Origin: Actinoplanes subtropicus
GTDB taxonomy: Bacteria; Actinomycetota; Actinomycetes; Mycobacteriales; Micromonosporaceae
Assembly (NCBI RefSeq): GCF_000721705.1
Contig: NZ_JOJL01000014.1
Coordinates: forward strand, 62,001-126,000
Direction of reading: 5' to 3'
DNA: 64,000 nt
Below the pieces are notes generated by a model. It did not search any database, was not told the origin of the DNA, and saw only the letters and a program-made list of their open reading frames with translations. The translations under genes were made by a program, and so were the position numbers. Each line of letters opens with the position of its first letter. The stretch's first letter is position 1. Positions 33,249 through 52,411 of this stretch are shown here, in pieces.

Positions 33249-33290
33249 AGCGCATTCCGGCCAACATTTGCCAACGCCGGGGCCGAGCGT

Positions 33291-33731: not shown

Positions 33732-33856
33732 GCGGGGCAGTTTAGCCCTCGCCCCGGACGCCCTCGCCGCAGCGGCGCCACCACCGGTCGATCACGTCGC
33801 CGGGCCGGATGCTTGCCGCGCGGAAACGGGCGGTACGACCTCCAGCCGGCCGAGTG

Positions 33857-35104
33857 CTATTCCGGAACAGCCGTCGAATCGACTCGCTCCGATGACAAGG
33901 TAATCGTCCGTACGTCGGCCGGCAGCAAGGTCAGCAGCTTCGTGGCCAGATACAGCGTGCCCGCGCCGAGCAGCAGCGGCGCGGCTCCTACGACCGTCGC
34001 GAGGAATCCGCCCGAGAAATATCCGATCGGCCGCAACGAAAGCGACCCCAGCCAGTCGTAGGACGACACGCGGGACAGCGCGTCGGGTGCGAGCTGACGT
34101 TGCAGCACGGTGAACCACAGCGAGTCGGGCAGCGTAACGGCGATGCCGGCCGGCACCGCCGCCACGATGACGACCCAGGACGGGGCACGCACGGCCAGGA
34201 CGAACAGCACCGGCGCGCCGAGCAGGTCGACCAGGCGGCAGAACACCAGCGGCCGCCGCGGCCGGACCCGCAGCGCCAGGGCATCGCCGACGATCTGGCC
34301 GACGCTCATCGCCGCGACGGTGACGCCCCAGATCAGAGCTCCACCCGCGCGCTGCAGGAGCAGCAACGGGCCGACGACCAGGAAGACCGCCTGGGCCAAC
34401 TGCCCGACCATGAAGCCGAGGATGGTCGACCACACCCACGGACGGGTGATCACTTCCCGGAAGCCGGCGGCGAGATCGGCGACGAACGAGGTGCGGTCGG
34501 TGCGCGGCGCCGGCCGCACGTCGATCCGCGACAGCAGCCACCCACCGACCAGGAACGTGAACGCATCGATCAACAGTGCGACGCCCGCGTCGCCACTGAC
34601 CGCCAGCACGGACGCGACAAGCGGCCCGAGGCTACCGGCGATGCTCCGGACCAGCGACAGCAGCGCGTTCGCCGGTTGCAGCAGCTCATCCGGCACGACC
34701 TGGGCGGTCAGCCCGTTCACCGACGGGAAGTAGAACGCGAGGGCGGTTCCGGTGCACGCCTGCGCGAGCACGGCGATCCAGAGGTGGAAGGCACCCGTGA
34801 CGAGCATGATTCCGATGGCGGCCTGAGCCGCGGCGCTCACCAGGTTCGTCACGACCATGACCTTGTGGCGGGGCAGACGGTCGGCCCAGACGCCGCCGAC
34901 GAGCAGGAACAGGACCGTCGGAACGCTGCTGGCCACCAGGACGAGGCTGTAGTCGTGGGCCGATCGGGTCAGGCTCAGCACACCCAGCGACAGCGCGACC
35001 GGGCTGAGCATGCTGCCGAAGATCGAAGTTGCCTGAGCCAGGAACTGATAACGGAAAGCGGGAACGCGAAGGGGCGCCGTCCAGTGCTGCCCGGCGGCGC
35101 TCAT
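33857..35104 (-). CDS. MFS exporter (EntS-like)
   Basis: A 415-residue membrane protein with 12 hydrophobic segments, starting FRYQFLAQATSIFGSMLSPVALSLGVLSL and carrying the loop-2/3 motif GGVWADRLPRHKVMVV of the major facilitator superfamily. It resembles the EntS-like group of siderophore and antibiotic exporters. It is the last gene of the long operon and overlaps the FemAB-like gene (ATGA), so it probably exports the phosphonate product or an intermediate. The glycopeptide has its own ABC exporter at the window end. Confidence 0.9.
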   Translation of the reverse strand: MSAAGQHWTAPLRVPAFRYQFLAQATSIFGSMLSPVALSLGVLSLTRSAHDYSLVLVASSVPTVLFLLVGGVWADRLPRHKVMVVTNLVSAAAQAAIGIMLVTGAFHLWIAVLAQACTGTALAFYFPSVNGLTAQVVPDELLQPANALLSLVRSIAGSLGPLVASVLAVSGDAGVALLIDAFTFLVGGWLLSRIDVRPAPRTDRTSFVADLAAGFREVITRPWVWSTILGFMVGQLAQAVFLVVGPLLLLQRAGGALIWGVTVAAMSVGQIVGDALALRVRPRRPLVFCRLVDLLGAPVLFVLAVRAPSWVVIVAAVPAGIAVTLPDSLWFTVLQRQLAPDALSRVSSYDWLGSLSLRPIGYFSGGFLATVVGAAPLLLGAGTLYLATKLLTLLPADVRTITLSSERVDSTAVPE

Positions 35105-36162
35105 CGGTCGCCGCCCGCGTCACCGCCGACCGCCCAGACGGACGAGAGCGTCGCACCCCGCAACATCTTCGGCCGGCTCGAGCCCAGGCCCAGCTGCAGG
35201 AGCCGGCAACCGTTCTCGATCGCGAACCGCAGGGGTGCGTAGACCAATGCCTCCACGTACGCGTAGTGCCGGTGCGCCGATTCCGCGAGCCCGATCTCGT
35301 AGAGCTCGAGAACGTCGCCGTGCCGGCATCCGAACGACACCGCCAGCAGCTCGCCGCCGGGATCCCGGACGGTGAAGGCCAGCCGCCGGCCCAGCGCGGC
35401 ACTGGCCCAGCCGGTCAGCCGCATGGCCGCGAGTCGCGGGTGGTCCGGGATGCCGTGCCGGGCCTTCACCGCGGCGACCAGGCCGGCCGACTCCGTGATC
35501 GCGTCCGCGGCCGGCACCGTCCGGCTCCGCAGCCCCCGCCGCCGCAGGCCGTCGAGGTCACGCCGTACGGTCGAGCGTCGCCCGGAGCTGAGCCCGCGAA
35601 GGTACGCCTCGATGCCCAGAGCGGGCACCGCCAGCTCGGCGAACTCGTCCACCGCACACGCGGCCCGGCGACCGCCCGCCCCGGCGCCGACGAAGGAATC
35701 CAGCTGAGCCTCGCGGACGTACAGCGAAGCACCCCGCAGGCCCCGCTCCCCGGCCTCGGCGAAGGCGCGCCCGACCAGCGCCGTTCCGACCCGGTGCCGT
35801 TCGGCGCCGGTCAGCTGCCCGGCCACGCTGTAGCCGGCGACGAGGTCGGCGGCCCCACCGATCAGCAGGTAGTCCCGCGCGTCCCCGCCGGAGCCGAAGA
35901 TCTCCGGAGCGACTTGCCGCGGATCGAACAACCCGCTCGCGAAACGGGGCCGGATGCTGCGCCACATCGGCAGCAGGCCGACCACCGCACCGTCCGACTC
36001 GGCCAGCACCCAGGAGACGGCCCACTGGGCGTCGGGTGCCCGCCGGAGCAGGTCCTGCGGCGCCAATGCGGCGGAGATCTGCCACCACCGGCGGGCTGCC
36101 AGCCCGGGTGGCAGGTCGGCCTGCTCCCGCACCGACACCGTCATGGCGACGCCCACACTCAT
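35101..36162 (-). CDS. FemAB/BioF2-like acyl or aminoacyl transferase
   Basis: A 353-residue protein with two GNAT-like halves, of the Acetyltransf_6 (FemAB-related) group. The Arg-rich segment LSSGRRSTVRRDLDGLRRRGL is followed by VKARHGIPDHPRLAA, then VSFGCRHGDVLELYEIGL and AYVEALVYAPLRFAIENGCRLLQLGLG, typical of the family. FemAB relatives use aminoacyl-tRNA to form amides, and tRNA-dependent transferases are known in other phosphonate pathways such as dehydrophos. A role in adding an amino acid to a phosphonate amine is therefore plausible. It overlaps both neighbours by ATGA. Confidence 0.75.
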   Translation of the reverse strand: MSVGVAMTVSVREQADLPPGLAARRWWQISAALAPQDLLRRAPDAQWAVSWVLAESDGAVVGLLPMWRSIRPRFASGLFDPRQVAPEIFGSGGDARDYLLIGGAADLVAGYSVAGQLTGAERHRVGTALVGRAFAEAGERGLRGASLYVREAQLDSFVGAGAGGRRAACAVDEFAELAVPALGIEAYLRGLSSGRRSTVRRDLDGLRRRGLRSRTVPAADAITESAGLVAAVKARHGIPDHPRLAAMRLTGWASAALGRRLAFTVRDPGGELLAVSFGCRHGDVLELYEIGLAESAHRHYAYVEALVYAPLRFAIENGCRLLQLGLGSSRPKMLRGATLSSVWAVGGDAGGDR

Positions 36163-37379
36163 GACGGGACCTCGAGCACGGCCGCCGTGCGTGCCACCGC
36201 GTCGAGCCGCCGCAACCGGGCAGCCATCGACCCTCGATCGGCTTCGACGAACACCGCGTACAGCGCCTGCAGGGAGCCCGCGCGGGAATCCACCAGATCG
36301 CCCGGCCGGGCGCGCATCCAAGCCTGCCAAACTCCGGGCTCCCTCCGGAAGAGCTGCGGGCCGGCCATCTCCACGACCCGATGCCGGCCCTCGGGCGGCT
36401 GCACCAGCAGGACCGCGGCATGCTCGCGAAAGGCGATCGCCTCGGCCTCGACCGCACGGCCGGCGGCCACGTCCATGGCCCACCGTACCGGATCCACATC
36501 GGTGACGCGACGCATCAGATCGCCGATCCAGCCGCCCAGCCGGCCATTGACCTCGATGATTCGCGGCCCGTCCGGCGTCAGCTTGATCTCGGTGTGGGTG
36601 AGGCCCGACCGTACGCCCAAGGCGGCGAGCGCCGCGGTCGCCAGGTCGCGCAGCGGGCCGCATTCGGCCGGGGCCAGCAGGCTCGGTGTGAGCAGGCCGC
36701 GCTCCCGGAAGGGCGGCGCCATCGCGAGCCGGTCGGTGACGGCGAAGTGGGTCGGCACTCCATCCTGGACGACGGACTCCACCGAGACGAAATCGGCCAG
36801 CACGTCTCCGTACGGGTGCACGCCGGGCGCCAGCATCTCCTCGACGATCCAGTCGGCCGGGCTCCCCGGATCGGCCGCGGCCGCGGCGGCGAACCGGCGT
36901 ACGTCCGCGGCCGAGTCACATCGCTGGGTCCATCGACTGCTGTCACTCACGGCGGGCTTGACGACCGCCGGGAACCCGATCCGGGCCGCGGCCGCCGGCA
37001 GGGCGGTCGGCGCGGCCACCGCCTCGAACCGGGTGACGCTGACGCCGGCGGCGTTCAACGCCCGCCGCTGCTCCACCTTCCCGGTGAGCAGCCGCGCCGT
37101 TCGTGGCGTATGGAAGGGCAGGCCCAACCGCTGCGCCAGGTCGGCGGCCGGCGGCACGGCCGCGTCGCTGAACGCCACGATGCCGGCGGGTTCCCTCCGC
37201 CGGAGAGCCATCAGGTCGGCGGCGTCGGCCGGTGGCCGGACGACCGGTGCCATCCGCTCCAGCAACGGATCCGGCTCGCCGACGAAGACGATCTCGTACC
37301 GCCCGTGTCCGGCCCGGATCACGTCGCGCGGCCCGGCCGTTCCGGGTGTCCGCACGACAAGCAGCGTCGGCCCGGTCAT
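36159..37379 (-). CDS. ATP-grasp ligase (amino-acid/peptide ligase type)
   Basis: A 406-residue carboxylate-amine ligase. Visible are the lysine loop IGFPAVVKPAVSDSS, hinge DWIVEEML, and the Mg-ATP end motif GLTHTEIKLTPDGPRIIEVNGRLGG. An N-terminal pre-ATP domain and a C-terminal extension fit the L-amino-acid ligase/CARNS group, whose members make dipeptides and, in rhizocticin-type pathways, join amino acids to phosphonates. It most likely forms an amide here; substrates are unknown. It is co-translated with the adenylation and FemAB-like genes. Confidence 0.85.
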   Translation of the reverse strand: MTGPTLLVVRTPGTAGPRDVIRAGHGRYEIVFVGEPDPLLERMAPVVRPPADAADLMALRRREPAGIVAFSDAAVPPAADLAQRLGLPFHTPRTARLLTGKVEQRRALNAAGVSVTRFEAVAAPTALPAAAARIGFPAVVKPAVSDSSRWTQRCDSAADVRRFAAAAAADPGSPADWIVEEMLAPGVHPYGDVLADFVSVESVVQDGVPTHFAVTDRLAMAPPFRERGLLTPSLLAPAECGPLRDLATAALAALGVRSGLTHTEIKLTPDGPRIIEVNGRLGGWIGDLMRRVTDVDPVRWAMDVAAGRAVEAEAIAFREHAAVLLVQPPEGRHRVVEMAGPQLFRREPGVWQAWMRARPGDLVDSRAGSLQALYAVFVEADRGSMAARLRRLDAVARTAAVLEVPS

Positions 37380-38938
37380 GACGCCCGGGCCAGGAGTTCG
37401 CGCAGAGCGAGGTGGTCGACCTTCCCGTTCCGGTTGACCGGGAACGAGTCAAGCCAGATCACCGTGGTCGGTATCTTGTAACGGGGCATCCGCCGGAGCA
37501 GGTAGGTCCTCATCTCCTCGAGCGGTCGCGGATTGCCGATCACCGCCGCCCGCAGACAGAGCCCGTCCCGCCCGTCCGGCAGGGCCAGCACAGCGGCGTC
37601 GAAGATGTCCGGGTGGGAGGCGAGCTGATATTCCACCTCGCCCAGTTCGACGCGACGACCGCTGAGCTTCACCTGCCGATCGGCCCGGCCGAGGTGCAGC
37701 AGGCCGTCGTCGACGACGCGTACCAGGTCGCCGGTGCGGTACCACCACTGCTCGGGAACCGTGCCGGGCTCGTCCATCAGTACCTCCGCCGAGCCGTCGG
37801 TCAGCCGGACGAAGCGACCCGGGTTGTCCGCCGGCGCGAGATAACCCCGGAATCGCTGGGCACCGCGAAGGCAGAGTTCCCCCTCGGCGGCCGAGGCCTT
37901 GTCGCCGTCCAGCAGGAACCAGTCGGCGCCCGGGTGCACGGTGCCGATCGGGACCGTGCCGTTGCTGGTGGCGGGCCACGCGGTGACGTCGGCCGGCAAC
38001 TCGTACTCGACGCAGGTGACGGTCAGTTCCGTCGGGCCGTAGGCGTTGCGGATCCGAGTGTTCGGCGCGGCGTCGACCCAGTCCGCGACCAGATGCAGCG
38101 GAAGCGGTTCGCCGACGAACATGCTGTAGCGCAGGGTCGGCATCGAGCCGGGACGCAACCTTCCGGACCGTCGCGCGTACGCCACGATCGACGGCACCGA
38201 GTACCAGTGGGTGATGCCTCGTTCGCGCACGTAGAAGGCCGGCGAGAGCAGCTCGCGACCGCGGGGGACGACCAGCGTGCCCCCGGAGGTCCAAGCGGCG
38301 AACATGTCGTGCACCGAGGGGTCGAAGGTGAGCGCATACGTGTGGGAGAGCCGTGCACCCGGTCCGGCGTCCGCCCGCGGCACCGCCTCGTCCAGGTAGG
38401 CCACGAGATTGCCGTGCGTGATCTGGACGCCCTTCGGCCGGCCGGTGGAGCCGGACGTGAACATGATGTACGCCAGGTCGCCGGGCCGCACTTCGTCGCC
38501 CGGCCGGTGGGACGGTGGGTCCGCATCCGCCGGGTCCACGACGACGACCCCGGCGTCCCGGACCGAGGCGATGAGGCCGGGATGGGCCGGCGGGTCGGCC
38601 ACGATCGCCGCGACGCCCGCGGCGCGACAGATCTCGACGTTGGCGGCGACCGGATTCTCGGGGTTCAACGGTACGACCACGTGGGCCTGCCGCCAGCACG
38701 CCAGGTACCAGGCGTAGGTGCTCGGGACCTTGTCCCCGACCAGGCCGACGCGACTCTGCCGGGGCAACCGCAGCCGGGCCAGGCGATCGGCACAGCCGCC
38801 GATGGCTCCGGCGAACTCGGCGTAGGTCAGCCGCGCCGAACCGGTGTCGAGCGCGATGCCGCGCGGATGCCTCGATGCGGTCAGCAGGACCCGCTCCAGG
38901 GTGAGCACCTCGGGGGCGAACGAGCCGTAGTCGGTCAT
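37376..38938 (-). CDS. Stand-alone NRPS adenylation domain
   Basis: A 520-residue amino-acid-activating enzyme without carrier or condensation domain. Core motifs: A3 FTSGSTGRPKGV, A5 NAYGPTELTVTC, A7 YRTGDLVRV, A8 segment GRADRQVKLSGRRVELGEVE and A10 NRNGKVD. The A4 region YALTFDPSVHDMF supplies the usual amino-group Asp, so an alpha-amino acid is the likely substrate; the pocket is not one I can decode. Carrier partners are the fusion protein at 38955-39857 and the T-C protein at 48544-50052. The ATG follows GGAGG. Confidence 0.9.
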   Translation of the reverse strand: MTDYGSFAPEVLTLERVLLTASRHPRGIALDTGSARLTYAEFAGAIGGCADRLARLRLPRQSRVGLVGDKVPSTYAWYLACWRQAHVVVPLNPENPVAANVEICRAAGVAAIVADPPAHPGLIASVRDAGVVVVDPADADPPSHRPGDEVRPGDLAYIMFTSGSTGRPKGVQITHGNLVAYLDEAVPRADAGPGARLSHTYALTFDPSVHDMFAAWTSGGTLVVPRGRELLSPAFYVRERGITHWYSVPSIVAYARRSGRLRPGSMPTLRYSMFVGEPLPLHLVADWVDAAPNTRIRNAYGPTELTVTCVEYELPADVTAWPATSNGTVPIGTVHPGADWFLLDGDKASAAEGELCLRGAQRFRGYLAPADNPGRFVRLTDGSAEVLMDEPGTVPEQWWYRTGDLVRVVDDGLLHLGRADRQVKLSGRRVELGEVEYQLASHPDIFDAAVLALPDGRDGLCLRAAVIGNPRPLEEMRTYLLRRMPRYKIPTTVIWLDSFPVNRNGKVDHLALRELLARAS

Positions 38939-38954
38939 GACCGCGCGCCTCCGC

Positions 38955-39857
38955 TCACTTCTCGGCCACGCTCTCGCACGCCCCGGTCACGGCGTCGAGC
39001 GTGCCCTCGACGAACAGCACTTCCAGCGGGAACGCGATTCCCAGCCGTCCCTCGACGCGCTCGGCGAGGGTCAGCGCCAGCTGGGAGTCACCGCCGATCG
39101 AGAAGAAGTCGTCATCGCCGTGCGCTTCGTCCAGCCCTAGGACGTCGCACCATTCCTGTCGCACCGCATCGGCGACCGCCGCCTTGTGCACGTGGACGAA
39201 CCCCTCTCGATCGCTCCCGTCGACGCGGTCTTCGCCGCGCGACTCCTCCGGTCGGTCGTCGCTCAGGCGGAACCGGCCCGCGGCGTCGACCGTGATCCGT
39301 ACCGGCTCGGTGTGCCCGGGATGGCGGTACCGCGCCCAGTAGCGGTGGGCCGGCACCCGCTCGCACCGGGCCAGCGCCGCTATCAGGGTGCCCTTGTGCC
39401 CGACGACGAGCACGTGTCCGGGTTGCGCGCGGGCCAGTTCGGTCAGGCGCTCGCAAACCCGCTCGGACATGGCCTCGTAGGGCTCGCCGGCGGTCCAGCC
39501 CGTGCCCTCGCCCGCGGTCCAGCGCCGCCATCGCCCGGGAAAGCGCGTGGCGATCTCCGCGTCGGTGAGGCCGGCCCATTCGCCGAGGTCGACCTCGCGA
39601 AGGCCGGGGTCCGGGCGCACCGGGAGACCGTGCGGCCCGGCTATCGTCACGGCGGTCTCCATGGCGCGCGCGAGATCGCTGGAATAGACCGCGTCGAAGC
39701 GTTCACCGGCGAGCGCACCCGCGCTTTCGGCGGCCTGCCGGCGACCGGTGGCGTTCAGCGGGACGTCGGTCTGCCCCAGCGACCGCCCCTGCCGGTTCCA
39801 ATCGGTCTCGCCGTGGCGCACCAGCACGAACGAGGTCGCACACTCCTCCGGGGTCAT
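38955..39857 (-). CDS. Histidine phosphatase fused to a peptidyl carrier domain
   Basis: A 300-residue two-domain protein. Residues about 8-205 are a histidine phosphatase (phosphoglycerate-mutase-like) with the phosphohistidine motif LVRHGETDWN (His15) and second His154 (VVGHKGT). Residues about 225-295 are a carrier domain with the phosphopantetheine serine Ser258 in FFSIGGDSQLAL. The join is in one continuous frame with an Asp/Glu-rich linker. The arrangement suggests dephosphorylation of a carrier-bound or nearby phosphate ester. I do not know of a characterised protein with this architecture. The ATG overlaps the aminotransferase stop. Confidence 0.85.
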   Translation of the reverse strand: MTPEECATSFVLVRHGETDWNRQGRSLGQTDVPLNATGRRQAAESAGALAGERFDAVYSSDLARAMETAVTIAGPHGLPVRPDPGLREVDLGEWAGLTDAEIATRFPGRWRRWTAGEGTGWTAGEPYEAMSERVCERLTELARAQPGHVLVVGHKGTLIAALARCERVPAHRYWARYRHPGHTEPVRITVDAAGRFRLSDDRPEESRGEDRVDGSDREGFVHVHKAAVADAVRQEWCDVLGLDEAHGDDDFFSIGGDSQLALTLAERVEGRLGIAFPLEVLFVEGTLDAVTGACESVAEK

Positions 39858-40933
39858 GTCCAGTCCTTCCCGATCTCGGTCAGCGCGGCCAGCAGGTCGT
39901 CGATGTCGGGCTCGCTGACCCAGCCCAGATGCCCGATCCGGATGGTGTCGGCATGCCAGTCCTCGCGGCCCGCGCTGACCGCGATCCCGTGGTCGGCCAG
40001 TCGCCGGCGGACCGCGGCCGCGGTGGCCCCGGGACCGGGGATCCGAACCGCCGTCACGGTGTCCGAGCGGCAACCGGGTTCCGCCCTCACCACGACGCCC
40101 AGGTTCGCCAGCCCGGCGCGCAGCCGGCCGGCGAGCGTCCGGTGCCGTTCGAAGACCGCCGCCAGGCCTTCGGACTCGATCTCGGCCAGCGCGGCGTCCA
40201 GCGCGAACAGGACGGTGACCGCGGGCGTGTAGCTGGTGGTACCCGCGTCGACCGACTCGGCCATCCGGACCAGGTCCAGCGACCATCGGGAACCGGGATT
40301 CGCGGCGGCGACCCGCAGAGCCCGGTCGCTGACCGCGACCAGAGCCAGGCCGGGTGGCGACATCAGCGCCTTCTGCGTCACGCCGACGGCGATGTCGATG
40401 CCGTGCCGATCGACCTCCACGGGCATTCCGCCGACGCTCGACACGACGTCGACCAGGAGAAGTGCCGCGCTCTCCTGGTGCACGACGGCGGCCAGCTCGG
40501 GCAGCGGATTGACCGCGCCGGTAGCGGTTTCGTTGTGCGTGAGCAGGACCGCCTTGACCGCTCTGCGCCGTCGCAGCAGACGGCGGAGAGCATCCGGAGC
40601 CGCCGCCTCACCCCAGGGCACCTGGAGGCGGGACACCGCGGCGCCGAACCCGGCGGCCACGTCCGCGAAGCGGTCGCCGAAGTAGCCGATGGTGACGGCC
40701 ACGACCTCGTCCCCCGGCGCGATGACGTTGCCGGCGGCGACTTCCAGCCCGCCGGTTCCCGAGGTCGTGAACGGCAGAACCGGGCGGCTCGAGCCGAACA
40801 CCGGTTGCAGGCGACGGCTGATGCCGGTCAGCATCGTACGGAACTCGGGTGAGCGGTGGCCGACGATCTGCCGGGCGCCGGCTCGGCGTACCGAAGGCGG
40901 AAGCGGAGTCGGTCCGGTCAGACGAAGGTTCAT
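39854..40933 (-). CDS. Class V aminotransferase (AEP transaminase/serine-glyoxylate type)
   Basis: A 359-residue PLP enzyme starting with the family hallmark LTGPTPLPPSVRRAG and carrying PLP lysine in GVTQKALMSPPGLALV, with VDVVSSVGGMPVEVD before it. The group contains PhnW-type 2-aminoethylphosphonate transaminases and alanine/serine-glyoxylate aminotransferases. Beside phosphonopyruvate decarboxylase, conversion of phosphonoacetaldehyde to 2-aminoethylphosphonate is the simplest role. ATG at 40933 is chosen because family members begin there; a GTG at 40942 would overlap the preceding stop. Confidence 0.83.
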   Translation of the reverse strand: MNLRLTGPTPLPPSVRRAGARQIVGHRSPEFRTMLTGISRRLQPVFGSSRPVLPFTTSGTGGLEVAAGNVIAPGDEVVAVTIGYFGDRFADVAAGFGAAVSRLQVPWGEAAAPDALRRLLRRRRAVKAVLLTHNETATGAVNPLPELAAVVHQESAALLLVDVVSSVGGMPVEVDRHGIDIAVGVTQKALMSPPGLALVAVSDRALRVAAANPGSRWSLDLVRMAESVDAGTTSYTPAVTVLFALDAALAEIESEGLAAVFERHRTLAGRLRAGLANLGVVVRAEPGCRSDTVTAVRIPGPGATAAAVRRRLADHGIAVSAGREDWHADTIRIGHLGWVSEPDIDDLLAALTEIGKDWT

Positions 40934-40938
40934 CGCCG

Positions 40939-45908: not shown

Positions 45909-46641
45909 CGGTGCTCTCCCGCCGGCCGGCGAGCCGCCGGACGAGCCGCTCGGCGACGGCCAGGTCGGGCCGGCTGTCGACCTCGGCCCACTCTCGTTCG
46001 TCCGCGGGTACGGTGCGGACGTCGTAGGTCGCGCTCAGGTCCACGATGGCCTCCTCGTACCAGTCCCGGTGGCCGCCCGCGTCGAGACGGCGGCCGATCG
46101 CCTCGGCCAGCCTCGTCGCGCCCTCCGCGGACCAGTACGACACCCCGAAGAACTCGCCCGCCGTCTCGCCCACCGGCAGGCTCTTGCTCATGCCGGTCAC
46201 CTTGCCGTCGGTCACGGCCGCCTTCATGTCGATCGCGCCGTACGGCTTGGAGACGTCGATGGCGAGACGATCGCCCCCGGCCTCCAGGAGCCGGCCGACG
46301 AGGGCCGCGTCGACCACGACGTCGCCGTCGACCAGGCAGAAGCCGTCGGTCCAGCGGTGCCGGGTCAGCCACAGCGAGACGATGCTGTTGGTCTCGGCGT
46401 AGTCGGCGTTGTTCTCGAATCGCACGGCGGGCCGCTCCGGGCACCGCCGGACCGAATCCTCCAGCACCCGGCGGTGGTGCCCGGTGACGACGACGGCCTC
46501 GGACACGCCCGCGTGTCCCAGCTGACGCAGGGTGTGCCAGATCAGTGGTTCGCCGTCGACCGGGACCAGCGCCTTGGGCATGGTGTCGGTGAACGGCGCC
46601 AGGCGCGAGCCGAGACCGGCCGCCGGAATGATCGCGAGCAT
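45895..46641 (-). CDS. LicC/PntC-like nucleotidyltransferase, predicted phosphonate cytidylyltransferase
   Basis: A 248-residue sugar-nucleotidyltransferase-fold enzyme. The N-terminal signature is IIPAAGLGSRLAPFTDTMPK, then LVPVDGEPLI, VVTGHH, DGDVVVD, and late acidic residues in WYEEAI and EVDSRPDL. LicC and PntC of this group make CDP-choline and CMP-aminoethylphosphonate. Two genes away is a CDP-alcohol transferase, so a CMP-phosphonate is the likely product. Sugar-1-phosphate activation cannot be excluded. Its start and the aminotransferase stop overlap as TGATG. Confidence 0.84.
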   Translation of the reverse strand: MLAIIPAAGLGSRLAPFTDTMPKALVPVDGEPLIWHTLRQLGHAGVSEAVVVTGHHRRVLEDSVRRCPERPAVRFENNADYAETNSIVSLWLTRHRWTDGFCLVDGDVVVDAALVGRLLEAGGDRLAIDVSKPYGAIDMKAAVTDGKVTGMSKSLPVGETAGEFFGVSYWSAEGATRLAEAIGRRLDAGGHRDWYEEAIVDLSATYDVRTVPADEREWAEVDSRPDLAVAERLVRRLAGRRESTDAGT

Positions 46642-47864
46642 CAGGCCCTCCGGGGTATCTGGTTGCTTGTCCCGGCCGCCAGCGCGGCGATCCGGCCCAG
46701 AGCCTCGTCGAGCCGCTCCGGCCGGCCGGGAAAGGACAGGCGTACGTGGTCTCGGGAAGTGGTGCCGAAGGCGGAACCCGCCACGACGGCGACGCGCGCC
46801 CGCTCGAGCAGGGCTTCCGCGACCAGGTCACCGGCGGCCCGGTCGGCACCGGCCGCGCCACCGGGCAGCCGGCCGGCGAGGTCCCGCACGTCGGCGAAGG
46901 CGTAGAAGCCGCCGTCGGGAAACCGGACATCGATGCCCGGGATCTCGGCGAGGCCGGCGACGAACGCCTCACCCTGGTGCCGTACCTGCCGGACCTGCCG
47001 GCCGACCCGGGTGTCCAGGTCCGGGTCGGCGAGGGCCGAGGCGCAGGCGAGTTGAACGACGTGGTTGACCGCCAGGTTCCCGAAGGTGTGCGCCTTCGCG
47101 GCCTCGGCGGCGAAGCCCGGTGCCGCGATCAGCCAGCCGATCCGCCAGCCGGCCATGCCGAACCGCTTCGACAGGCTGTTCACGGTGATTCCGACGTCGG
47201 GTGCGAGGGCGTGGAGGTGCGCGTGCCGATGCGCGTACGAGAAGTTCTCCAGCACCTCGTCGTAGACGATCCGCAGGCCACGCCGCCGGGCCAGGTCGGC
47301 GAACCGGGAGAGCAGATCGGCGGGACAGACCACACCGGTCGGGTTGGCCGGCGAGTTGATGATCAGCATCCGGGTCCTGCTCGTGACGGCGGCCTCGACC
47401 CGCTCCGGGTCGAGCGCGAAGCCGTCGGCCGGGTACGTCGGCACTCGTACCGGGACCCGGCCCAGCACCGCGACGACCGGCTCGTAGAGCATGTAGCACG
47501 GATCCGGCAGCAGGATCTCGTCGCCGGCGTCGCTGCCGGTGAGCACGGCGAGGAACATCGCGCCGGCCGCACCGTGGGTGACGACGACGTCGGCGTCCGG
47601 GTCGACGTGGACGCCCTGGCGTCCGTACAGCCCGGCGATGGCGGCCAGCAGCGCCGGAGCCCCGCGAACCGGGGCGTAGCGGTCGTGCCGGGCGGCCGCC
47701 GCGCCCTGCCCGGCCAGGGTGAGCGCGAGCTCGGCGCGGACGATGTCCGGCGGCCCGTACGCCGGCAGACCCATCGTCAGATCCACGATGCCGGGATCGC
47801 GGGCGACCATTTCGGCGATCCGGCTCGACTGATGTGCCGGCAGCCGGGCGAGCAGTTCGTTCAC
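46641..47864 (-). CDS. Class I PLP aminotransferase
   Basis: A 407-residue fold-type I enzyme with NSPANPTGVVCP, YDEVLENFSYAH, PLP lysine in VNSLSKRFGMAGWRIGW and the terminal RLSFPGR motif. It belongs to the broad aspartate aminotransferase superfamily; substrate unknown. It is the second aminotransferase of the operon, after the class V enzyme, and might make phosphonoalanine from phosphonopyruvate or an amino acid for conjugation. The GTG at 47864, after GGGAGAAG, overlaps the CDP-alcohol transferase stop. Confidence 0.87.
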   Translation of the reverse strand: MNELLARLPAHQSSRIAEMVARDPGIVDLTMGLPAYGPPDIVRAELALTLAGQGAAAARHDRYAPVRGAPALLAAIAGLYGRQGVHVDPDADVVVTHGAAGAMFLAVLTGSDAGDEILLPDPCYMLYEPVVAVLGRVPVRVPTYPADGFALDPERVEAAVTSRTRMLIINSPANPTGVVCPADLLSRFADLARRRGLRIVYDEVLENFSYAHRHAHLHALAPDVGITVNSLSKRFGMAGWRIGWLIAAPGFAAEAAKAHTFGNLAVNHVVQLACASALADPDLDTRVGRQVRQVRHQGEAFVAGLAEIPGIDVRFPDGGFYAFADVRDLAGRLPGGAAGADRAAGDLVAEALLERARVAVVAGSAFGTTSRDHVRLSFPGRPERLDEALGRIAALAAGTSNQIPRRA

Positions 47865-48550
47865 GGCGCTTCTCCCGGCGCTTCGCGACCGGCCAGGCGG
47901 ACGACGGCGACCAGGCGCCACAGCAGGTTCAGCACCGACACACCGGCCACGACGAGGACCGCGGCCAGGAGCACCACCGCGCGGCCGGTGACACCCTCGA
48001 TCACCAAGCCGAGCGAGAGCAGCGTGAACCGGGCATCGCTGCCGGACGTGAGCCAGCAGAACAGGCCGTCCGCCTGCCGCTTCGGATAACCGCGGCCGAA
48101 GGCGCTGCGAAACTTCTCCGACGACACGACGAGCAACAACACGGCGGCCAACAGCACCAGGCCGGCTGCCGGGCCCCAGTGCGGGTACGTCCGGCGCAGG
48201 TCGACGGCGAGGGCGAGCACGAAGGCGCATTCCACGATGCGGTCCACCATCGTGTCCAGGAAGTCACCGAGGCGGCTGGTCTGGCCACGCAACCGCGCGA
48301 CCTCGCCGTCCACACACGACAGCACGCTGAAGGCAGTGATCACGACGGCCGCCACGATCGGCCATCCCGCGGCCGCGGCCGCCGCGGCGGCCAGCCCGGC
48401 CAGCAGACCCCATCCGGTCGCGGCGTTGGCCGACATCCGGGGAGCGACCAGCGGCGACACCCGGGCGGACACCGGCCGGTGCAGGTAGTGGTTGTAGGGG
48501 CCGTCGGTGGCGGGCTTACCCAGACGGCGTATCGGCCGGGCGGTCACCAT
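47861..48550 (-). CDS. CDP-alcohol phosphatidyltransferase-family membrane enzyme
   Basis: A 229-residue integral membrane protein with about six hydrophobic helices. The family motif DG-x2-AR-x8-G-x3-D-x3-D is present as VDGEVARLRGQTSRLGDFLD ending at Asp103. The usual extra Asp three residues before the DG pair is Ser78 (SCVDG), a notable change at a metal-ligand position. Such enzymes swap CMP of a CDP-alcohol for an acceptor hydroxyl. With a nucleotidyltransferase gene close by, the pair resembles the IPCT/DIPPS module of inositol phosphodiester synthesis and could place a phosphonate on an alcohol or lipid. Confidence 0.87.
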   Translation of the reverse strand: MVTARPIRRLGKPATDGPYNHYLHRPVSARVSPLVAPRMSANAATGWGLLAGLAAAAAAAAGWPIVAAVVITAFSVLSCVDGEVARLRGQTSRLGDFLDTMVDRIVECAFVLALAVDLRRTYPHWGPAAGLVLLAAVLLLVVSSEKFRSAFGRGYPKRQADGLFCWLTSGSDARFTLLSLGLVIEGVTGRAVVLLAAVLVVAGVSVLNLLWRLVAVVRLAGREAPGEAP

Positions 48551-50052
48551 TGCCGCTCCAGGAACGTCGCCAGTGTCCGCAGGTGCTGGTCGGCGAGCCG
48601 GTCGACCGTCGCCGGCCGGTAGGCCGCGAGACTGTAGTGCCAGCCGATCACCAGCTCCCCGTCGACCACATCGGCGGTGACCTCGAGATTGTAGGGCTGC
48701 AGGCCGTGCGGTAGCCGCCAGAGCCCGGCACCGCGGTCGACCTCCGCGATCGAGGCCGGCGGCGGGGCGGCGGGTCCGCCTCGATAGTTCACGTACAACT
48801 CCGGCTGCGGCAGCTCGGCCAGCTGAGCGGCGATCCGGGGATCCGCCAGCCACCGCAACGCCAGGAACCCGAGGGCATCGCCCGGCATCGCGGCCCGCGC
48901 CCGGGCGACCGCCGCGACGGATCCGGACGTGTCGTTCACCGCGCCGAGGTCCACCACCAGCGGGTCGATCGCGGCGAGCCAGCCCACGATGTCGCCCACG
49001 GTCCCGAAGCCGGGCAGTTCCCGGCCCGGCCCGTACATGTCGACGGCGATCGTCGACGTGTCGAGCCAGCTTCGCCAGACGTCGCAGAGCGTGCCGATGA
49101 AGACGTCCCGGGCGGTCCGGCCGGACACCGAGCGGCGGAGCTGCCTCGTCTGGGCGGCCGGCAACCGGCGGGAGGCCACCTGAACACTGGCGAAGGTTCG
49201 CTCACCGTCGAGGTCCACCGGGACCGCCGCGAGCCGGTCCCACGGCCGGGTGCGCCAGTACCGGGCGCGTTCGGCGGCCAGCGGGCCGGATGCCGCCTCC
49301 GCGAGCAGGGCGGCCCACGACCGGTAGGAGATGGTGGGCGGAGTCAGCGCGGCGCCGGCCAGTGCACGCTCGAGGTCCGCGGTGATCGTCGCCCAGGAGA
49401 AGACGTCGTAGATCAGGTGGTGGACGACGATCAGCACCTCCCGCCGGCGAGGCGCCGCGAAGTCGAGAACGACGAACCGGGCGAGAGCGCCGGCGGCCGG
49501 GCCGACCTCGCGGTGGGTCTCCTCCAGGATCTGCCCGAGCGTCTCCTCCGTGGTGTCCGCCGGAAGCTCGCGGACGAGGACCGGAGGCAGGCCCGGCCGG
49601 TCCGCGACCCGCCCGTGCCAGCCGTCATCGTCGTGGCCGATGACGAGCCGGAACGCCTCGTGACGCTCGGCCACGGCGGTCAGCGCGGTGACGAGCCGGT
49701 CCACCGGCAGGTCCTCGGCCGGCCGGAACCACGCGACCCCGTTGTAGCGCTCGGTCGAGCGGTTCTCCTGATGAAGGAAGCGCAGCTGGCTGGGCAGCAG
49801 CGGCACCCGCGCCGATTCGGCCGGCCGACGGGGTGGCGTCACCGGGCCCACCCGGGCCGCCAGCTCGGCCACGCTATCGGCCAGCATGAGATCTTCCTGG
49901 CCGACCAGGATTCCGGCGCGGGTCGCGAGTTCCGAGATCCGGACCGCGGTCAGGGAATCGCCGCCGAGATCGTAGAAGTTGTCGTCCGGCTTGACCTCGT
50001 CGACCTGGAGTACCGACCGCCAGATGTCGATGAGTGTGTCCAGCTGATTCAT
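48544..50052 (-). CDS. NRPS carrier-condensation (T-C) didomain protein
   Basis: A 502-residue protein. Residues about 5-68 are a carrier domain with phosphopantetheine Ser33 (YDLGGDSLTAVRIS). From about residue 85 comes a condensation domain with the active-site motif HHLIYD (His211, His212, Asp216) intact. It lacks adenylation and termination domains. It would receive an aminoacyl or phosphonate unit loaded by the separate adenylation enzyme and form an amide with a free amine. ATG at 50052 follows GAGGGTGG, 11 bases after the PEP mutase stop. Confidence 0.9.
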   Translation of the reverse strand: MNQLDTLIDIWRSVLQVDEVKPDDNFYDLGGDSLTAVRISELATRAGILVGQEDLMLADSVAELAARVGPVTPPRRPAESARVPLLPSQLRFLHQENRSTERYNGVAWFRPAEDLPVDRLVTALTAVAERHEAFRLVIGHDDDGWHGRVADRPGLPPVLVRELPADTTEETLGQILEETHREVGPAAGALARFVVLDFAAPRRREVLIVVHHLIYDVFSWATITADLERALAGAALTPPTISYRSWAALLAEAASGPLAAERARYWRTRPWDRLAAVPVDLDGERTFASVQVASRRLPAAQTRQLRRSVSGRTARDVFIGTLCDVWRSWLDTSTIAVDMYGPGRELPGFGTVGDIVGWLAAIDPLVVDLGAVNDTSGSVAAVARARAAMPGDALGFLALRWLADPRIAAQLAELPQPELYVNYRGGPAAPPPASIAEVDRGAGLWRLPHGLQPYNLEVTADVVDGELVIGWHYSLAAYRPATVDRLADQHLRTLATFLERQW

Positions 50053-50063
50053 GTCCACCACCC

Positions 50064-50978
50064 TCAGGACGCCAGTCGAGGCTTCGGACCGCCACCGGCG
50101 GGTTGTTCGTCCATCGCCGTCCACGTGGTCATGTCCACCAGATCGAAGATCTCCTTGATCGGCGTGATCTCACCCTCCACGGGGGCCGAGCCATCGGCCG
50201 CGCTGATGGCGGCGAGGACCTCCTGGGTGGCACGGACCGACGCGCGCAGCGTCTGGTTGGCGTAGATGACCATGGACACTCCCTCCGCCGCCGCCTGGTC
50301 GGCGGTCCAGTGCGGATAGGTCGTGGGCACGACCACGACCGGTCGCCGCCGCTGCCAGCGGGACAGGAACGCGCGAATCTCCTCCGGCCCGTTCCGCTTC
50401 GAGTGGATGAGGACCGCGTCGGCGCCGGCGTCCGCGTACGCGTTCGCCCGCCGCAGCACCTCGTCGACGCCCATGCCGGCGACGAACGCCTCGACGCGGG
50501 CCACCACGACGAAGTCGGCGCGCTGCTGAGAACCCTTCGCCAGCTCGATCCGCGCGGCGAACTCGTCGATGTCCTCCAGCACCTGACCCTCGTCCACGAA
50601 GCTGTTCCGCTTGGGGAAGACCTTGTCCTCGATGCAGACGCCGGCGACGCCCGCGGCCTCGTACCGCCGGATCATGTGCGCGATGTTCGCCCGGCCGCCG
50701 AAGCCGGTGTCGCAATCGGCGAGCATGGGCAGCTCGGTCGCGACGTCGATCGACACGGAGACGGTCAACAGCTCGGACATGCCCAGCAGGCTCAGGTCGG
50801 GCAGCGCCTGGGTGGCCGACAGCTCGAAGCTCGACGCCCAGATGCCGTCGAAGCCGGCCCGCTCCACCAGGCGAGCGGTGAGGGCGTCCCGGGCCCCGGC
50901 CAGGCGCGCGACCCGGGGCCGGGTCAACAGGTCCCGCAGGTGCGCCGCCTTGGATCCGATCCCGAAACTGATGTCCAC
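50064..50978 (-). CDS. pepM: Phosphoenolpyruvate mutase
   Basis: A 304-residue isocitrate-lyase-superfamily enzyme forming the C-P bond by converting PEP to phosphonopyruvate, the first step of nearly all phosphonate pathways. The diagnostic EDKxxxxxNS motif is exact: EDKVFPKRNS (Glu117 to Ser126), separating it from carboxyphosphonoenolpyruvate and methylisocitrate enzymes. Further support: GADAVLIHSK and MLADCDTGFGG (Mg site). The GTG follows AAGGAG. It is second gene of the operon, after glycerate kinase. Confidence 0.96.
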   Translation of the reverse strand: MDISFGIGSKAAHLRDLLTRPRVARLAGARDALTARLVERAGFDGIWASSFELSATQALPDLSLLGMSELLTVSVSIDVATELPMLADCDTGFGGRANIAHMIRRYEAAGVAGVCIEDKVFPKRNSFVDEGQVLEDIDEFAARIELAKGSQQRADFVVVARVEAFVAGMGVDEVLRRANAYADAGADAVLIHSKRNGPEEIRAFLSRWQRRRPVVVVPTTYPHWTADQAAAEGVSMVIYANQTLRASVRATQEVLAAISAADGSAPVEGEITPIKEIFDLVDMTTWTAMDEQPAGGGPKPRLAS

Positions 50979-51068
50979 GGTGGTGTTCTCCTTCGTGACG
51001 GCCGCCGGTGACGGCAGCGGGCAGGGCAGGGGCAGGCCGGCAGGTGGATCCGGGAGAAGGCGGTCCCG

Positions 51069-52181
51069 TCACCGGGGAGCCGGATCGGCGCAGAGCCGGG
51101 TGTGGTGCTCGCGCACGATCCGCTCGGCCGCCCGCCGGATGTCGGCGGCGCCGACCTCCGAGCCGTTCTCGCTCAATGGCAGGCACCGGGTGCCCGGCGG
51201 CAGCAGGTGGCCGGGGATGTCCGCGGTCGCCGAGACGACGGTGCACGGTACGCCGTGCCGCGCGGCCATGGCGGCGACGGCCAGCGGCAGCTTGCCGTCG
51301 GCGGACGACGGGTCGACCCGCCCCTCCCCGGTGATCACCAGGTCGGCGTCGCCCATCAGCGACTCCACCCCGGCCAGGGCCAGAAAGAACTGGCTGCCCG
51401 AGGAGGCGGTGGCGCCGATCCGGCTCAGGCCGGAGGCGAGGCCGCCCCCCGCGCCGTACCACGGGCGAGACAGGCCGGCGGAGCCCGCCGGTAACAAGTG
51501 TTCGGACAGCGCTCGCAGCATGGTCTCGAAACGCGACACCGTCCGCGGGTCCATGCCCTTCTGGGGGCCGAAGAGCCGGGCGTTGTCGGCCAAGGGCGTG
51601 CGGACGTCGCTCAGCACGGTGAGCTCGACCCCGCGCAGCAGCGGGCTGAGCCGGCTGGTGTCGACGGCGGCGATCTCGTGCAGTTCGCTCGGCACCGGGG
51701 ACCTCGCGCGGCCGGATCCGTCCAGGAACCGTACGCCCAGCGCGGCCAGGGCGCCGGCGCCCATGTCCAGGGTGGCGCTGCCGCCGGCACCGATCACGAT
51801 CCAGCGCGCGCCCCGCGCGGCCGCCGCGAGGATCAGCTGGCCGGTGCCGAACGTGTTGGACCGCAACGGATCCCGGGCGGCCCCGGTGAGCAGCCGGAGC
51901 CCGCTGGCCGCGGCCATCTCGATGAAGGCCGTGCCGTCCTCGGCCACGGCGTACCCGGCCTCGACCGGGCGGCCCAGCGGGTCCCGGGCCTGGGCCGGCA
52001 CCTCGCGGCCCCCGACCAGGCGCAGCCATTGTTCCTGGCTGCCGTCGCCGCCGTCGGCCAGCGGCACCGCAACGACGGAGACCGACGGGCCGGCGGCTCG
52101 CGCACCGTCCGCCGCGGCCCGCGCGACGACGGCGGAGGTCAGGGTGCCGCGGAAACAATTGGTCACGACGACGACTTTCAT
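51069..52181 (-). CDS. Glycerate kinase (GarK/GlxK type)
   Basis: A 370-residue kinase with the PF02595 features PLADGGDGSQE, IGAGGSATLDMGAGALAALG, FGPQKGMDP, YGAGGGLASGL and VITGEGRVDPSSADGK. This family phosphorylates glycerate, commonly at the 2-position; 2-phosphoglycerate gives PEP by enolase. As first gene of the operon, 90 bases before PEP mutase, it may increase PEP supply, or it may phosphorylate a glycerate-like unit of the product. The ATG follows GGGGGATCC. Confidence 0.9.
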   Translation of the reverse strand: MKVVVVTNCFRGTLTSAVVARAAADGARAAGPSVSVVAVPLADGGDGSQEQWLRLVGGREVPAQARDPLGRPVEAGYAVAEDGTAFIEMAAASGLRLLTGAARDPLRSNTFGTGQLILAAAARGARWIVIGAGGSATLDMGAGALAALGVRFLDGSGRARSPVPSELHEIAAVDTSRLSPLLRGVELTVLSDVRTPLADNARLFGPQKGMDPRTVSRFETMLRALSEHLLPAGSAGLSRPWYGAGGGLASGLSRIGATASSGSQFFLALAGVESLMGDADLVITGEGRVDPSSADGKLPLAVAAMAARHGVPCTVVSATADIPGHLLPPGTRCLPLSENGSEVGAADIRRAAERIVREHHTRLCADPAPR

Positions 52182-52275
52182 GGATCCCCCGTAGTCGGCC
52201 GACGGCGTCATTCACCATTCGAAGTGATCGATGGCTGGTGGGCTGCCCGAATGCATGGATATTCGCCGGCGCCAC

Positions 52276-52312
52276 GTCGCGGTCAAGATTTGTTAACGCC
52301 GATGACCGCGAC
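52276..52312. promoter_or_regulatory. Inverted repeat in the phosphonate-operon promoter
   Basis: GTCGCGGTCA (52276-52285) and TGACCGCGAC (52303-52312) are perfect 10-base complements with a 17-base AT-rich spacer, about 95 bases before the glycerate kinase start. The sequence does not match the StrR operator, so a different regulator is implied. A TTCGAA string occurs on both sides of it. Confidence 0.6.
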
Positions 52313-52363
52313 CGTTCGAACATATGCCGTCGTCGCTTAACGGTCAACCGGGCCTCATGAAAG

Positions 52364-52395: not shown

Positions 52396-52411
52396 ACGGG
52401 TTCGGCGATCT

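What the first reader, a model, noticed from the sequence alone, without database searches (positions are those of the whole stretch)
33857..52181. Seventeen-gene phosphonate operon embedded in a glycopeptide antibiotic cluster
PEP mutase and phosphonopyruvate decarboxylase sit in a co-directional operon with mostly four-base overlaps from glycerate kinase to an MFS exporter. GPA precursor genes lie on one side and GPA hydroxylase, halogenase and P450 genes on the other. Known GPA clusters contain sugar, acyl, sulfate or methyl tailoring genes here, and none of those is in the window. This suggests a phosphonate-bearing glycopeptide or an obligately co-produced phosphonate. I know of no described example but could not search.
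Basis: partly seen in the sequence, partly recalled or inferred. Interest (0 to 1): 0.95.

Follow-up and report, generated by a model that had tools for sequence, protein, structure and literature searches.

The report
Phosphonopeptide operon inside glycopeptide antibiotic cluster
A 17-gene operon predicted to make a small peptide with a carbon-phosphorus bond sits in the middle of a glycopeptide antibiotic gene cluster, behind terminator-like and promoter-like signals, so this bacterium would likely make two separate antibiotics from one chromosomal neighbourhood rather than one hybrid molecule.

Summary
In detail: 17 co-directional genes run from glycerate kinase (start 52181) to an MFS exporter (end 33857), with PepM (EDKxxxxxNS) and Ppd, between glycopeptide (GPA) precursor genes and GPA hydroxylase, halogenase and P450 genes. 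The main inference does not. The sugar and methyl tailoring genes and four NRPS genes lie just right of the window. In two related clusters DAHP synthase and the beta-hydroxylase are 207 and 172 bp apart; here 19.3 kb separates them. That segment holds the operon, a perfect 14-bp hairpin after the hydroxylase gene and a sigma70-like site, but no StrR-type box as good as those of the GPA genes. Its core (TauD-like dioxygenase, glycerate kinase, Ldh_2, PepM, Ppd, alcohol dehydrogenase, class-V aminotransferase) occurs in two Streptomyces without GPA-specific genes in the stretch held; it also has A, PCP, C, ATP-grasp and FemX-fold peptide ligases. Best reading: a self-sufficient phosphonopeptide pathway, probably ending in a serine- or alanine-like aminophosphonate, co-located with a GPA. 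A phosphonate-bearing glycopeptide is possible but disfavoured. No second GPA-phosphonate pair turned up in the genomes or papers searched.

The parts
33101..52411 (-). Whole inserted segment between DAHP synthase (start 33100) and CmlA-type hydroxylase (stop at 52412)
   Evidence: Intergenic distance 19,311 bp here, 207 bp in G043 and 172 bp in G094
51069..52181 (-). Glycerate kinase family protein
   Evidence: PF02595, 307.6 bits; 55-56% to Streptomyces L015/L016
50064..50978 (-). PepM, phosphoenolpyruvate mutase
   Evidence: PF13714, 183.9 bits; EDKVFPKRNS
48544..50052 (-). Free-standing carrier protein plus condensation domain (PCP-C)
   Evidence: PF00550 + PF00668; GGDS and HHLIYD motifs; 72% full-length relative and 98% fragment in metagenomes
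47861..48550 (-). CDP-alcohol phosphatidyltransferase-like membrane protein
   Evidence: PF01066, 37.4 bits, cut-off 22; start; no NCBIfam match at 1e-30
46641..47864 (-). Fold-type I aminotransferase-like PLP enzyme
   Evidence: PF00155; a 34% relative lies between the TauD-like gene and pepM in G880
45895..46641 (-). MobA-like nucleotidyltransferase (PntC/LicC-like)
   Evidence: PF12804; solved relatives LicC 1jyk and PntC 6pd1
45171..45908 (-). Thioesterase with GRCMG at the nucleophile site
   Evidence: PF00975; motif
44308..45171 (-). TauD-family dioxygenase, likely phosphonate hydroxylase
   Evidence: PF02668; best solved relative FrbJ 5eqn, also TmpA 6npb
43181..44311 (-). Malate/L-lactate/sulfolactate dehydrogenase family (Ldh_2)
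   Evidence: PF02615, 351.2 bits; best NCBIfam model L-sulfolactate dehydrogenase, below cut-off (235.3 of 500)
42069..43184 (-). Ppd, phosphonopyruvate decarboxylase
   Evidence: TIGR03297, 326.7 bits, cut-off 312.5; PF02775/PF02776
40939..42072 (-). Iron-type alcohol dehydrogenase, likely phosphonoacetaldehyde reductase
   Evidence: PF00465; best NCBIfam model is the phosphonate-linked TIGR03405, below cut-off (182.3 of 423.7); lies near pepM/ppd in other genomes
39854..40945 (-). Class V aminotransferase
   Evidence: PF00266; solved relatives serine-pyruvate and AEP aminotransferases; no NCBIfam cut-off reached
38955..39857 (-). Histidine phosphatase fused to a carrier protein
   Evidence: PF00300 + PF00550; RHGET and GGDS motifs; best NCBIfam model is alpha-ribazole phosphatase, below cut-off (136 of 162.9)
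37376..38938 (-). Free-standing NRPS-type adenylation domain
   Evidence: PF00501, 215.8 bits; PDB relatives; amino acid adenylation model 291.4 of 317.4
36159..37379 (-). ATP-grasp amino-acid ligase
   Evidence: PF13535; solved relatives BacD and L-amino acid ligases
35101..36162 (-). FemX-fold GNAT, likely aminoacyl-tRNA-dependent peptide ligase
   Evidence: PF13480; no PDB match by sequence; AlphaFold pLDDT 94; top fold matches Sba18/Sbb17 and FemX
33857..35104 (-). MFS exporter
   Evidence: PF07690, 98.9 bits
33291..33731 (-). Small GNAT, possible self-protection acetyltransferase, inside the insert but outside the 17-gene operon
   Evidence: PF00583; best NCBIfam match is aminoalkylphosphonate N-acetyltransferase but far below its cut-off (56.4 of 142)
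52340..52415 (-). Terminator-like perfect 14-bp hairpin after the CmlA hydroxylase gene; short T tract
   Evidence: -35.8 kcal/mol, z -4.0; no such stem in the G043 or G094 gaps
52319..52347 (-). Sigma70-like site TTGACC-17-TATGTT before glycerate kinase
   Evidence: 1 found in 33200-52800 against 0.7 expected, so weak on its own
52412..54004 (-). GPA CmlA-type beta-hydroxylase, right border
   Evidence: PF18456, 247.6 bits; 81-87% to three relatives
32039..33100 (-). GPA DAHP synthase, left border (start inferred from the upstream and start sequence shared with relatives)
   Evidence: PF00793; 84-90% to three relatives; start

Best explanation
A 19.3-kb segment carrying a 17-gene phosphonate operon separates the DAHP-synthase and beta-hydroxylase genes of a glycopeptide cluster that otherwise resembles related clusters, and it is predicted to make a separate phosphonopeptide that is likely co-produced with, not attached to, the glycopeptide. 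Shown by sequence: the insertion point, gene content, intact frames and motifs. Inferred route: PepM makes phosphonopyruvate, Ppd phosphonoacetaldehyde and the iron dehydrogenase hydroxyethylphosphonate; the TauD-like enzyme hydroxylates it to dihydroxyethylphosphonate, which is glycerate with a phosphonate in place of the carboxylate. Glycerate kinase, Ldh_2, an aminotransferase and the histidine phosphatase would then replay the phosphorylated serine pathway and give the phosphonic analogue of serine, or, if the second PLP enzyme eliminates phosphate as recalled for dehydrophos, of alanine. The A/PCP/C proteins, the ATP-grasp ligase and the FemX-type ligase would add amino acids, and the MFS pump would export the peptide. 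The nucleotidyltransferase would make a CMP-phosphonate intermediate.
For: Empty site in G043 and G094. GPA tailoring and NRPS genes present right of the window. Seven core genes form an operon in two Streptomyces at 47-60% identity; of 26 GPA-cluster proteins only the ABC exporter matched there, at 34-35%. Ppd above its NCBIfam cut-off. TauD-like protein nearest to FrbJ, also TmpA; nucleotidyltransferase to LicC and PntC; ATP-grasp to BacD; GNAT predicted with the fold of tRNA-dependent peptide synthases and FemX. A GNAT-PCP-A-ATP-grasp cassette (40-49%) occurs in another Actinoplanes, G051, with no PepM match at E 1e-60 and no GPA-specific match in the 36 kb around it. Hairpin and promoter-like site; no StrR-type box above 14 of 18 before the operon, against 16-18 before GPA genes.
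Against: No metabolite data. PepM scores below NCBIfam's equivalog cut-off, and the dehydrogenases, class-V aminotransferase and phosphatase reach no NCBIfam cut-off; the phosphatase's best model there is alpha-ribazole phosphatase, not phosphoserine phosphatase. The step order after hydroxyethylphosphonate is inferred; dehydrophos enzymes were recalled, not compared. The CDP-alcohol transferase has no role in a simple peptide route. The promoter match is at chance level (1 against 0.7), and terminator-like sites in the region are 7 against 4.1 expected. G068 also carries an extra gene at this junction, so genes there might serve the GPA.
Confidence: 0.62

Rival explanations
1. The phosphonate is attached to the glycopeptide: the free-standing C domain, an amino-acid ligase or the CDP-alcohol transferase puts the aminophosphonate (or a CMP-activated form) on the GPA peptide or a sugar.
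For: Location inside the GPA cluster; the same junction holds an adenylating-enzyme-like frame in G068; carrier protein, C domain and a PntC-like enzyme are present.
Against: GPA tailoring set already present; the operon has its own exporter and ligases and stands behind terminator- and promoter-like signals; its core and its ligation cassette both occur elsewhere without GPA-specific genes in the stretches held; no StrR-type box.
Confidence: 0.1
2. Cell-surface tailoring: the operon makes a phosphonolipid or phosphonoglycan, with the PntC-like enzyme and CDP-alcohol transferase as its core and the A/PCP/C genes adding an aminoacyl group.
For: MobA-like nucleotidyltransferase nearest to LicC/PntC plus CDP-alcohol transferase. 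PMC6697681 (passages read) states that most bacterial phosphonate capacity tailors cell surfaces.
Against: TauD-like enzyme, kinase, Ldh_2, three kinds of peptide ligase and an MFS exporter are not needed for that; the CDP-alcohol enzyme lacks the first Asp of its recalled motif.
Confidence: 0.15
3. Chance landing: the operon makes a phosphonopeptide but has no functional or selective tie to the glycopeptide.
For: 1 GPA cluster of the 4 compared carries it; 2 of 23 CmlA-positive family genomes have a PepM match and in the second, G104, it is on another contig; hairpin and promoter-like site; no StrR-type box.
Against: Placement between two co-directional neighbouring GPA genes with the GPA genes around it open; GC (0.725 against 0.722) shows no sign of recent arrival.
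Confidence: 0.35
4. Assembly artefact joining two clusters.
For: Draft assembly of 215 contigs; no independent read of the two junctions was available.
Against: Both borders lie inside one 221-kb contig; composition is uniform; the insert begins and ends between conserved genes without breaking either.
Confidence: 0.03

Closest known systems
Teicoplanin/actaplanin-type glycopeptide clusters (here the unnamed G068, G043, G094)
   Same: Dpg/Hpg precursor genes, DAHP synthase, CmlA hydroxylase, halogenase, four P450s, MbtH, ABC exporter, glycosyltransferase(s) and NRPS in each; named single genes match at 46-90%. G068 has the left half in the same order; in G043 and G094 the precursor genes are reordered
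   Different: None of the three has a phosphonate operon at the DAHP-hydroxylase junction; G068 has an adenylating-enzyme-like frame there and gave no match to the hexose dehydratase, epimerase or methyltransferases in the 100 kb held. Product names are recalled, not tested
Dehydrophos pathway of Streptomyces luridus (recalled from literature; sequences not available here)
   Same: Recalled set: PepM, Ppd, alcohol dehydrogenase, two-oxoglutarate dioxygenase, glycerate kinase, malate-dehydrogenase-like enzyme, aminotransferase, tRNA-dependent peptide ligase
   Different: No methyltransferase family match in the operon; adds phosphatase-PCP fusion, A and PCP-C proteins, ATP-grasp ligase, PntC-like and CDP-alcohol enzymes
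Seven-gene phosphonate operon of Streptomyces sp. HB132 (L015) and S. mutomycini (L016)
   Same: TauD-like, glycerate kinase, Ldh_2, PepM, Ppd, Fe-ADH, class V aminotransferase, 47-60% identical
   Different: None of the other ten operon proteins found in the 21 kb held of each; no GPA-specific match
Antibiotic superclusters such as cephamycin C plus clavulanic acid (recalled)
   Same: Two different pathways side by side
   Different: No synergy or shared regulator shown here; the operon sits inside, not beside, the other cluster

Membership tests
PepM-dependent phosphonate gene cluster | PepM with EDKxxxxxNS motif | tested here: met
   EDKVFPKRNS; Pfam above cut-off. NCBIfam equivalog cut-off not reached (289.4 of 319.55)
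PepM-dependent phosphonate gene cluster | Driving second step: Ppd or equivalent near pepM | tested here: met
   NCBIfam phosphonopyruvate decarboxylase 326.7 of 312.5; 38-51% to genes near pepM in other genomes
PepM-dependent phosphonate gene cluster | Phosphonate is actually produced | not testable with these tools
   Needs 31P NMR
Glycopeptide antibiotic cluster | Heptapeptide NRPS, four Oxy P450s, Dpg/Hpg precursor genes, van genes | tested here: met
   Four NRPS-size genes of 2089, 1499, 4066 and 1887 aa, matching NRPS of relatives; four P450s; DpgA/C/D, HmaS, HmO; VanA-like ligase. Domains read for one NRPS gene only; module number not counted
Type V glycopeptide (no sugars) | No glycosyltransferase | tested here: not met
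   Glycosyltransferases and sugar genes right of the window
Dehydrophos-type pathway | Hydroxylase, glycerate kinase, Ldh_2-type dehydrogenase and aminotransferase after hydroxyethylphosphonate | tested here: inconclusive
   All gene types present, but no dehydrophos sequence was on hand to compare
Dehydrophos-type pathway | tRNA-dependent peptide ligase | tested here: inconclusive
   Fold matches Sba18/Sbb17 and FemX, TM about 0.5-0.57; activity untested
GPA StrR-type regulon | StrR-type palindrome before the operon | tested here: not met
   Best 14 of 18 against 16-18 before GPA genes; consensus recalled, then refined on these clusters

The most novel reading that the evidence does not exclude
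A two-drug supercluster against one target: the cluster makes a glycopeptide that caps D-Ala-D-Ala and, from the embedded operon, a serine- or alanine-phosphonate peptide (alafosfalin-like) that starves the cell of D-Ala, so that both hit the same step of wall assembly. It would be the first natural glycopeptide-phosphonopeptide pair, built by replaying phosphorylated serine biosynthesis on a phosphonate scaffold.
Probability: 0.2. Interest if true: 0.88.

Novelty: new variant of a known kind. Interest (0 to 1): 0.64.

Why it matters
Phosphonates and glycopeptides are both proven antibiotic classes, and no joint cluster appeared in the paper searches made here (mostly listings). If the two products act together, the producer has already solved a drug combination; alafosfalin, a synthetic aminophosphonate peptide, is reported to synergise with other wall inhibitors (PMC7144462, passages read). 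Even without synergy, the operon predicts a new phosphonopeptide from a defined 19.3-kb piece that can be cloned whole.

Tried and rejected
Phosphonate operon in place of GPA tailoring: rejected, tailoring genes found outside the window. Type V (sugar-free) GPA: rejected for the same reason. PepM near GPA-like P450s in three Actinoplanes (L073, L075, L076): followed and rejected; the P450 matches there are 32-38%, the wider flanks L091-L096 give only P450 pieces (34-42%) and adenylating-domain pieces (25-27%) and no CmlA, Dpg, HmaS or halogenase match at E 1e-8, and the ORFs of L075, read by eye, are ketosynthase-, acyltransferase- and P450-like. Glycerate kinase orthologues in a class sample: only the window's own, 1 of 394 at E 1e-70. 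PepM in an order sample: 5 of 397 at E 1e-75 including own, best other 51%; the flanks of the three new ones hold, of the GPA-region proteins, only NRPS, VanH-type dehydrogenase and an aminotransferase match. Border repeats as an insertion scar: none longer than 9 bp. A recalled StrR consensus gave 7 hits in the own 124 kb against 1-5 in shuffles, so it was refined on the clusters' own boxes; that second scan is not independent, gives 18 own hits of 15 or more against 5-12 in shuffles, and one 15-of-18 match lies inside the glycerate kinase gene (51623). Adenylation-domain specificity: PDB relatives only, no residue code computed by a call. Dehydrophos enzyme order: not found in the papers. 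HisPhos-PCP fusion: the only hit with both domains among 120 listed of 1344 is the window's own cluster.


Full report
WHAT IS THERE. The window is G000:C14:62001-126000 of an 11.26-Mb genome in 215 contigs. The pattern in the finding is real. Seventeen minus-strand genes run from a glycerate kinase (start 52181) to an MFS exporter (end 33857): glycerate kinase, PepM, PCP-C, CDP-alcohol transferase, aminotransferase I, nucleotidyltransferase, thioesterase, TauD-like dioxygenase, Ldh_2 dehydrogenase, Ppd, Fe-alcohol dehydrogenase, aminotransferase V, histidine phosphatase-PCP, adenylation domain, ATP-grasp ligase, FemX-like GNAT and MFS. Of the 16 junctions 8 overlap by exactly four bases, 5 overlap by another amount and 3 are gaps of 90, 11 and 16 bp. 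PepM carries EDKVFPKRNS and is the only one of six PEP_mutase-family loci in the genome with that motif, though it scores 289.4 against NCBIfam's cut-off of 319.55. Ppd passes its cut-off (326.7 of 312.5). An eighteenth gene, a small GNAT at 33291-33731, lies between the operon and the next GPA gene.

THE GLYCOPEPTIDE CLUSTER IS NOT SHORT OF TAILORING GENES. To the left lie precursor genes (HmaS, HmO, Pdh, HpgT, DpgA, DpgC, DpgD, DAHP synthase) and a second CmlA-type hydroxylase; to the right a CmlA-type hydroxylase, two halogenases, four P450s, MbtH and an ABC exporter. They are absent only because the window ends. From 41 bases beyond it come a PMT-type mannosyltransferase, several family-28-type glycosyltransferase frames, two methyltransferases, an NDP-hexose 2,3-dehydratase and an epimerase, then NRPS-size genes of 1887, 4066, 1499 and 2089 aa. 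Domains were read for one of these four; modules were not counted.

THE OPERON IS AN INSERTION RELATIVE TO RELATED CLUSTERS. The hydroxylase at 52412 has homologues in 22 other genomes of the family (23 of 354 with own, E 1e-100); the regions of the three closest (87, 83 and 81%) were fetched. All three hold glycopeptide genes; G068 has the left half in the same order as here, while G043 and G094 share the stretch from DAHP synthase through the P450s but have the precursor genes reordered. In G043 and G094 the hydroxylase stop and the DAHP-synthase start are 207 and 172 bp apart; here they are 19,311 bp apart. In G068 the same gap is 2.4 kb and holds an open frame of 604 codons with adenylating-enzyme motifs. 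The junction is therefore variable in this cluster family. No repeat longer than 9 bp marks the borders, and GC is the same as in the GPA genes (0.725 against 0.722). Which state is ancestral was not tested.

IT STANDS BEHIND ITS OWN SIGNALS. Directly after the hydroxylase stop there is a perfect 14-bp hairpin (-35.8 kcal/mol, z -4.0, 0 of 200 shuffles as stable) with a short T tract; no perfect stem of 8 or more with a loop of 3-8 occurs in the G043 or G094 gaps. The generic scan finds 7 terminator-like sites in the region against 4.1 expected, and a TTGACC-17-TATGTT site, the only promoter match, where 0.7 are expected. StrR-type palindromes of 16-18 of 18 lie before GPA genes (for example 18459, 30346 and 61803); the best before the operon, the small GNAT and DAHP synthase are 14, 13 and 14. 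That box was refined on these clusters; the own 124 kb gives 18 hits of 15 or more against 5-12 in shuffles, one of them (15, at 51623) inside the glycerate kinase gene. The evidence points to a separate transcription unit without being proof.

WHERE ITS PARTS OCCUR ELSEWHERE. Two Streptomyces records (L015, L016) hold a compact operon of TauD-like enzyme, glycerate kinase, Ldh_2, PepM, Ppd, Fe-ADH and aminotransferase V at 47-60% identity; of 26 GPA-cluster proteins only the ABC exporter matches in their 21 kb, at 34-35%. In Actinoplanes G051, which had no PepM match at E 1e-60, GNAT, PCP, A and ATP-grasp genes sit side by side at 40-49%, with only generic NRPS and ABC matches in the 36 kb around them. 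In G880 a TauD-like gene (52%) and an aminotransferase (34%) adjoin pepM, ppd and Fe-ADH. So the operon looks like a joining of a phosphonate core and a peptide-ligation cassette. Metagenome proteins match PCP-C at 72% (full length) and 98% (fragment) and the GNAT at 98% and 67%, so parts of the operon are not confined to this genome; their context could not be read.

CO-OCCURRENCE. PepM matches at E 1e-60 occur in 20 of 354 family genomes and at E 1e-75 in 5 of 397 of an order sample, own included in both. About 10 kb on each side was read for 20 of the 21 other family places and for the 3 new order places. No CmlA, DpgA, HmaS or halogenase match was found there. Three family places have P450 matches of 32-38% nearby; 50-60 kb around each shows no GPA-specific gene. 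Of the 23 family genomes with the hydroxylase only G104 besides the window's own has such a PepM, on a different contig. Conserved GPA-phosphonate pairing was thus not found.

HOW IT PROBABLY WORKS. Standard steps (established knowledge): PepM, Ppd and Fe-ADH give hydroxyethylphosphonate. The TauD-like enzyme is nearest among solved structures to FrbJ and also matches TmpA, a phosphonate hydroxylase, so C1 hydroxylation to dihydroxyethylphosphonate is likely. That compound is glycerate with a phosphonate for the carboxylate. A glycerate kinase, an Ldh_2 dehydrogenase (relatives include sulfolactate dehydrogenase), an aminotransferase V (relatives serine-pyruvate and AEP aminotransferases) and a histidine phosphatase would repeat the phosphorylated serine pathway and end at the phosphonic analogue of serine. 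Against this, the dehydrogenase, aminotransferase V and phosphatase reach no specific NCBIfam cut-off, and the phosphatase's best model there is alpha-ribazole phosphatase. From recall, dehydrophos uses the same early steps and then eliminates phosphate to reach the alanine analogue; the second aminotransferase-like enzyme could do this here. Three kinds of peptide-bond former are present: A/PCP/C proteins with GGDS and HHxxxD motifs, an ATP-grasp ligase related to BacD, and a GNAT without a PDB match by sequence whose predicted structure (pLDDT 94) best matches aminoacyl-tRNA-dependent peptide synthases Sba18/Sbb17 and FemX. The nucleotidyltransferase resembles LicC and PntC; with the CDP-alcohol transferase it could mask the phosphonate as a CMP adduct or ester. 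This last step is the least certain, and the same gene pair is what a cell-surface phosphonate would need.

WHAT IT MEANS. The best reading is a self-sufficient phosphonopeptide pathway placed inside a glycopeptide cluster. Whether the two products cooperate is open. A serine- or alanine-phosphonate peptide could aim at D-alanine supply, as alafosfalin does, and alafosfalin synergises with other wall inhibitors (PMC7144462, passages read); this makes a combined attack on D-Ala-D-Ala an attractive but untested idea. Literature: searches for phosphonate or phosphoenolpyruvate mutase with glycopeptide terms and for Actinoplanes glycopeptide clusters and phosphonate clusters, seen as listings, gave no description of such a pair. 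The one paper with all three terms, the review PMC9231227, treats the two classes in separate passages (passages read). PMC12723261, on phosphonate mining in actinomycetes, contains neither 'glycopeptide' nor 'Actinoplanes' (term search). The library lacks most subscription journals.

Noticed in passing
window 12259-13524; G000:C14:170218-171860: A VanA-type D-Ala-D-Lac ligase (NCBIfam 587.5 bits, cut-off 550) lies at the far left of the cluster, about 95 kb from a 2-hydroxyacid dehydrogenase (VanH-like) gene and its neighbour, a VanX-like gene by eye. In G094 the homologues of all three lie within 6 kb of each other.
   Followed up: partly
G000:C14:168319-169440 (+): A plus-strand frame looks like a second, VanH-like sequence by eye; no family search was made on it.
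   Followed up: no
window 45171-45908: The thioesterase has GRCMG, a cysteine where thioesterases of this kind usually have serine (recalled).
   Followed up: no
window 47861-48550: The CDP-alcohol transferase keeps DGxxARx8Gx3Dx3D but has serine in place of the first aspartate of the recalled motif.
   Followed up: no
L147 10418-14442 (G051:C97): A four-gene GNAT-PCP-A-ATP-grasp cassette without pepM: possibly a small peptide pathway of its own.
   Followed up: partly
G068:C1:3542196-3544563: An open frame of 604 codons with adenylating-enzyme motifs occupies the same DAHP-hydroxylase junction in a related cluster.
   Followed up: partly
L073, L075, L076: Three Actinoplanes share a pepM/ppd/aminotransferase region with P450 matches; in L075 the neighbours look like ketosynthase and acyltransferase genes by eye: another uncharacterised phosphonate locus.
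   Followed up: partly
window 38955-39857: Histidine phosphatase fused to a carrier protein; apart from the window's own cluster, no protein with both precomputed domains among the 120 listed homologues.
   Followed up: partly
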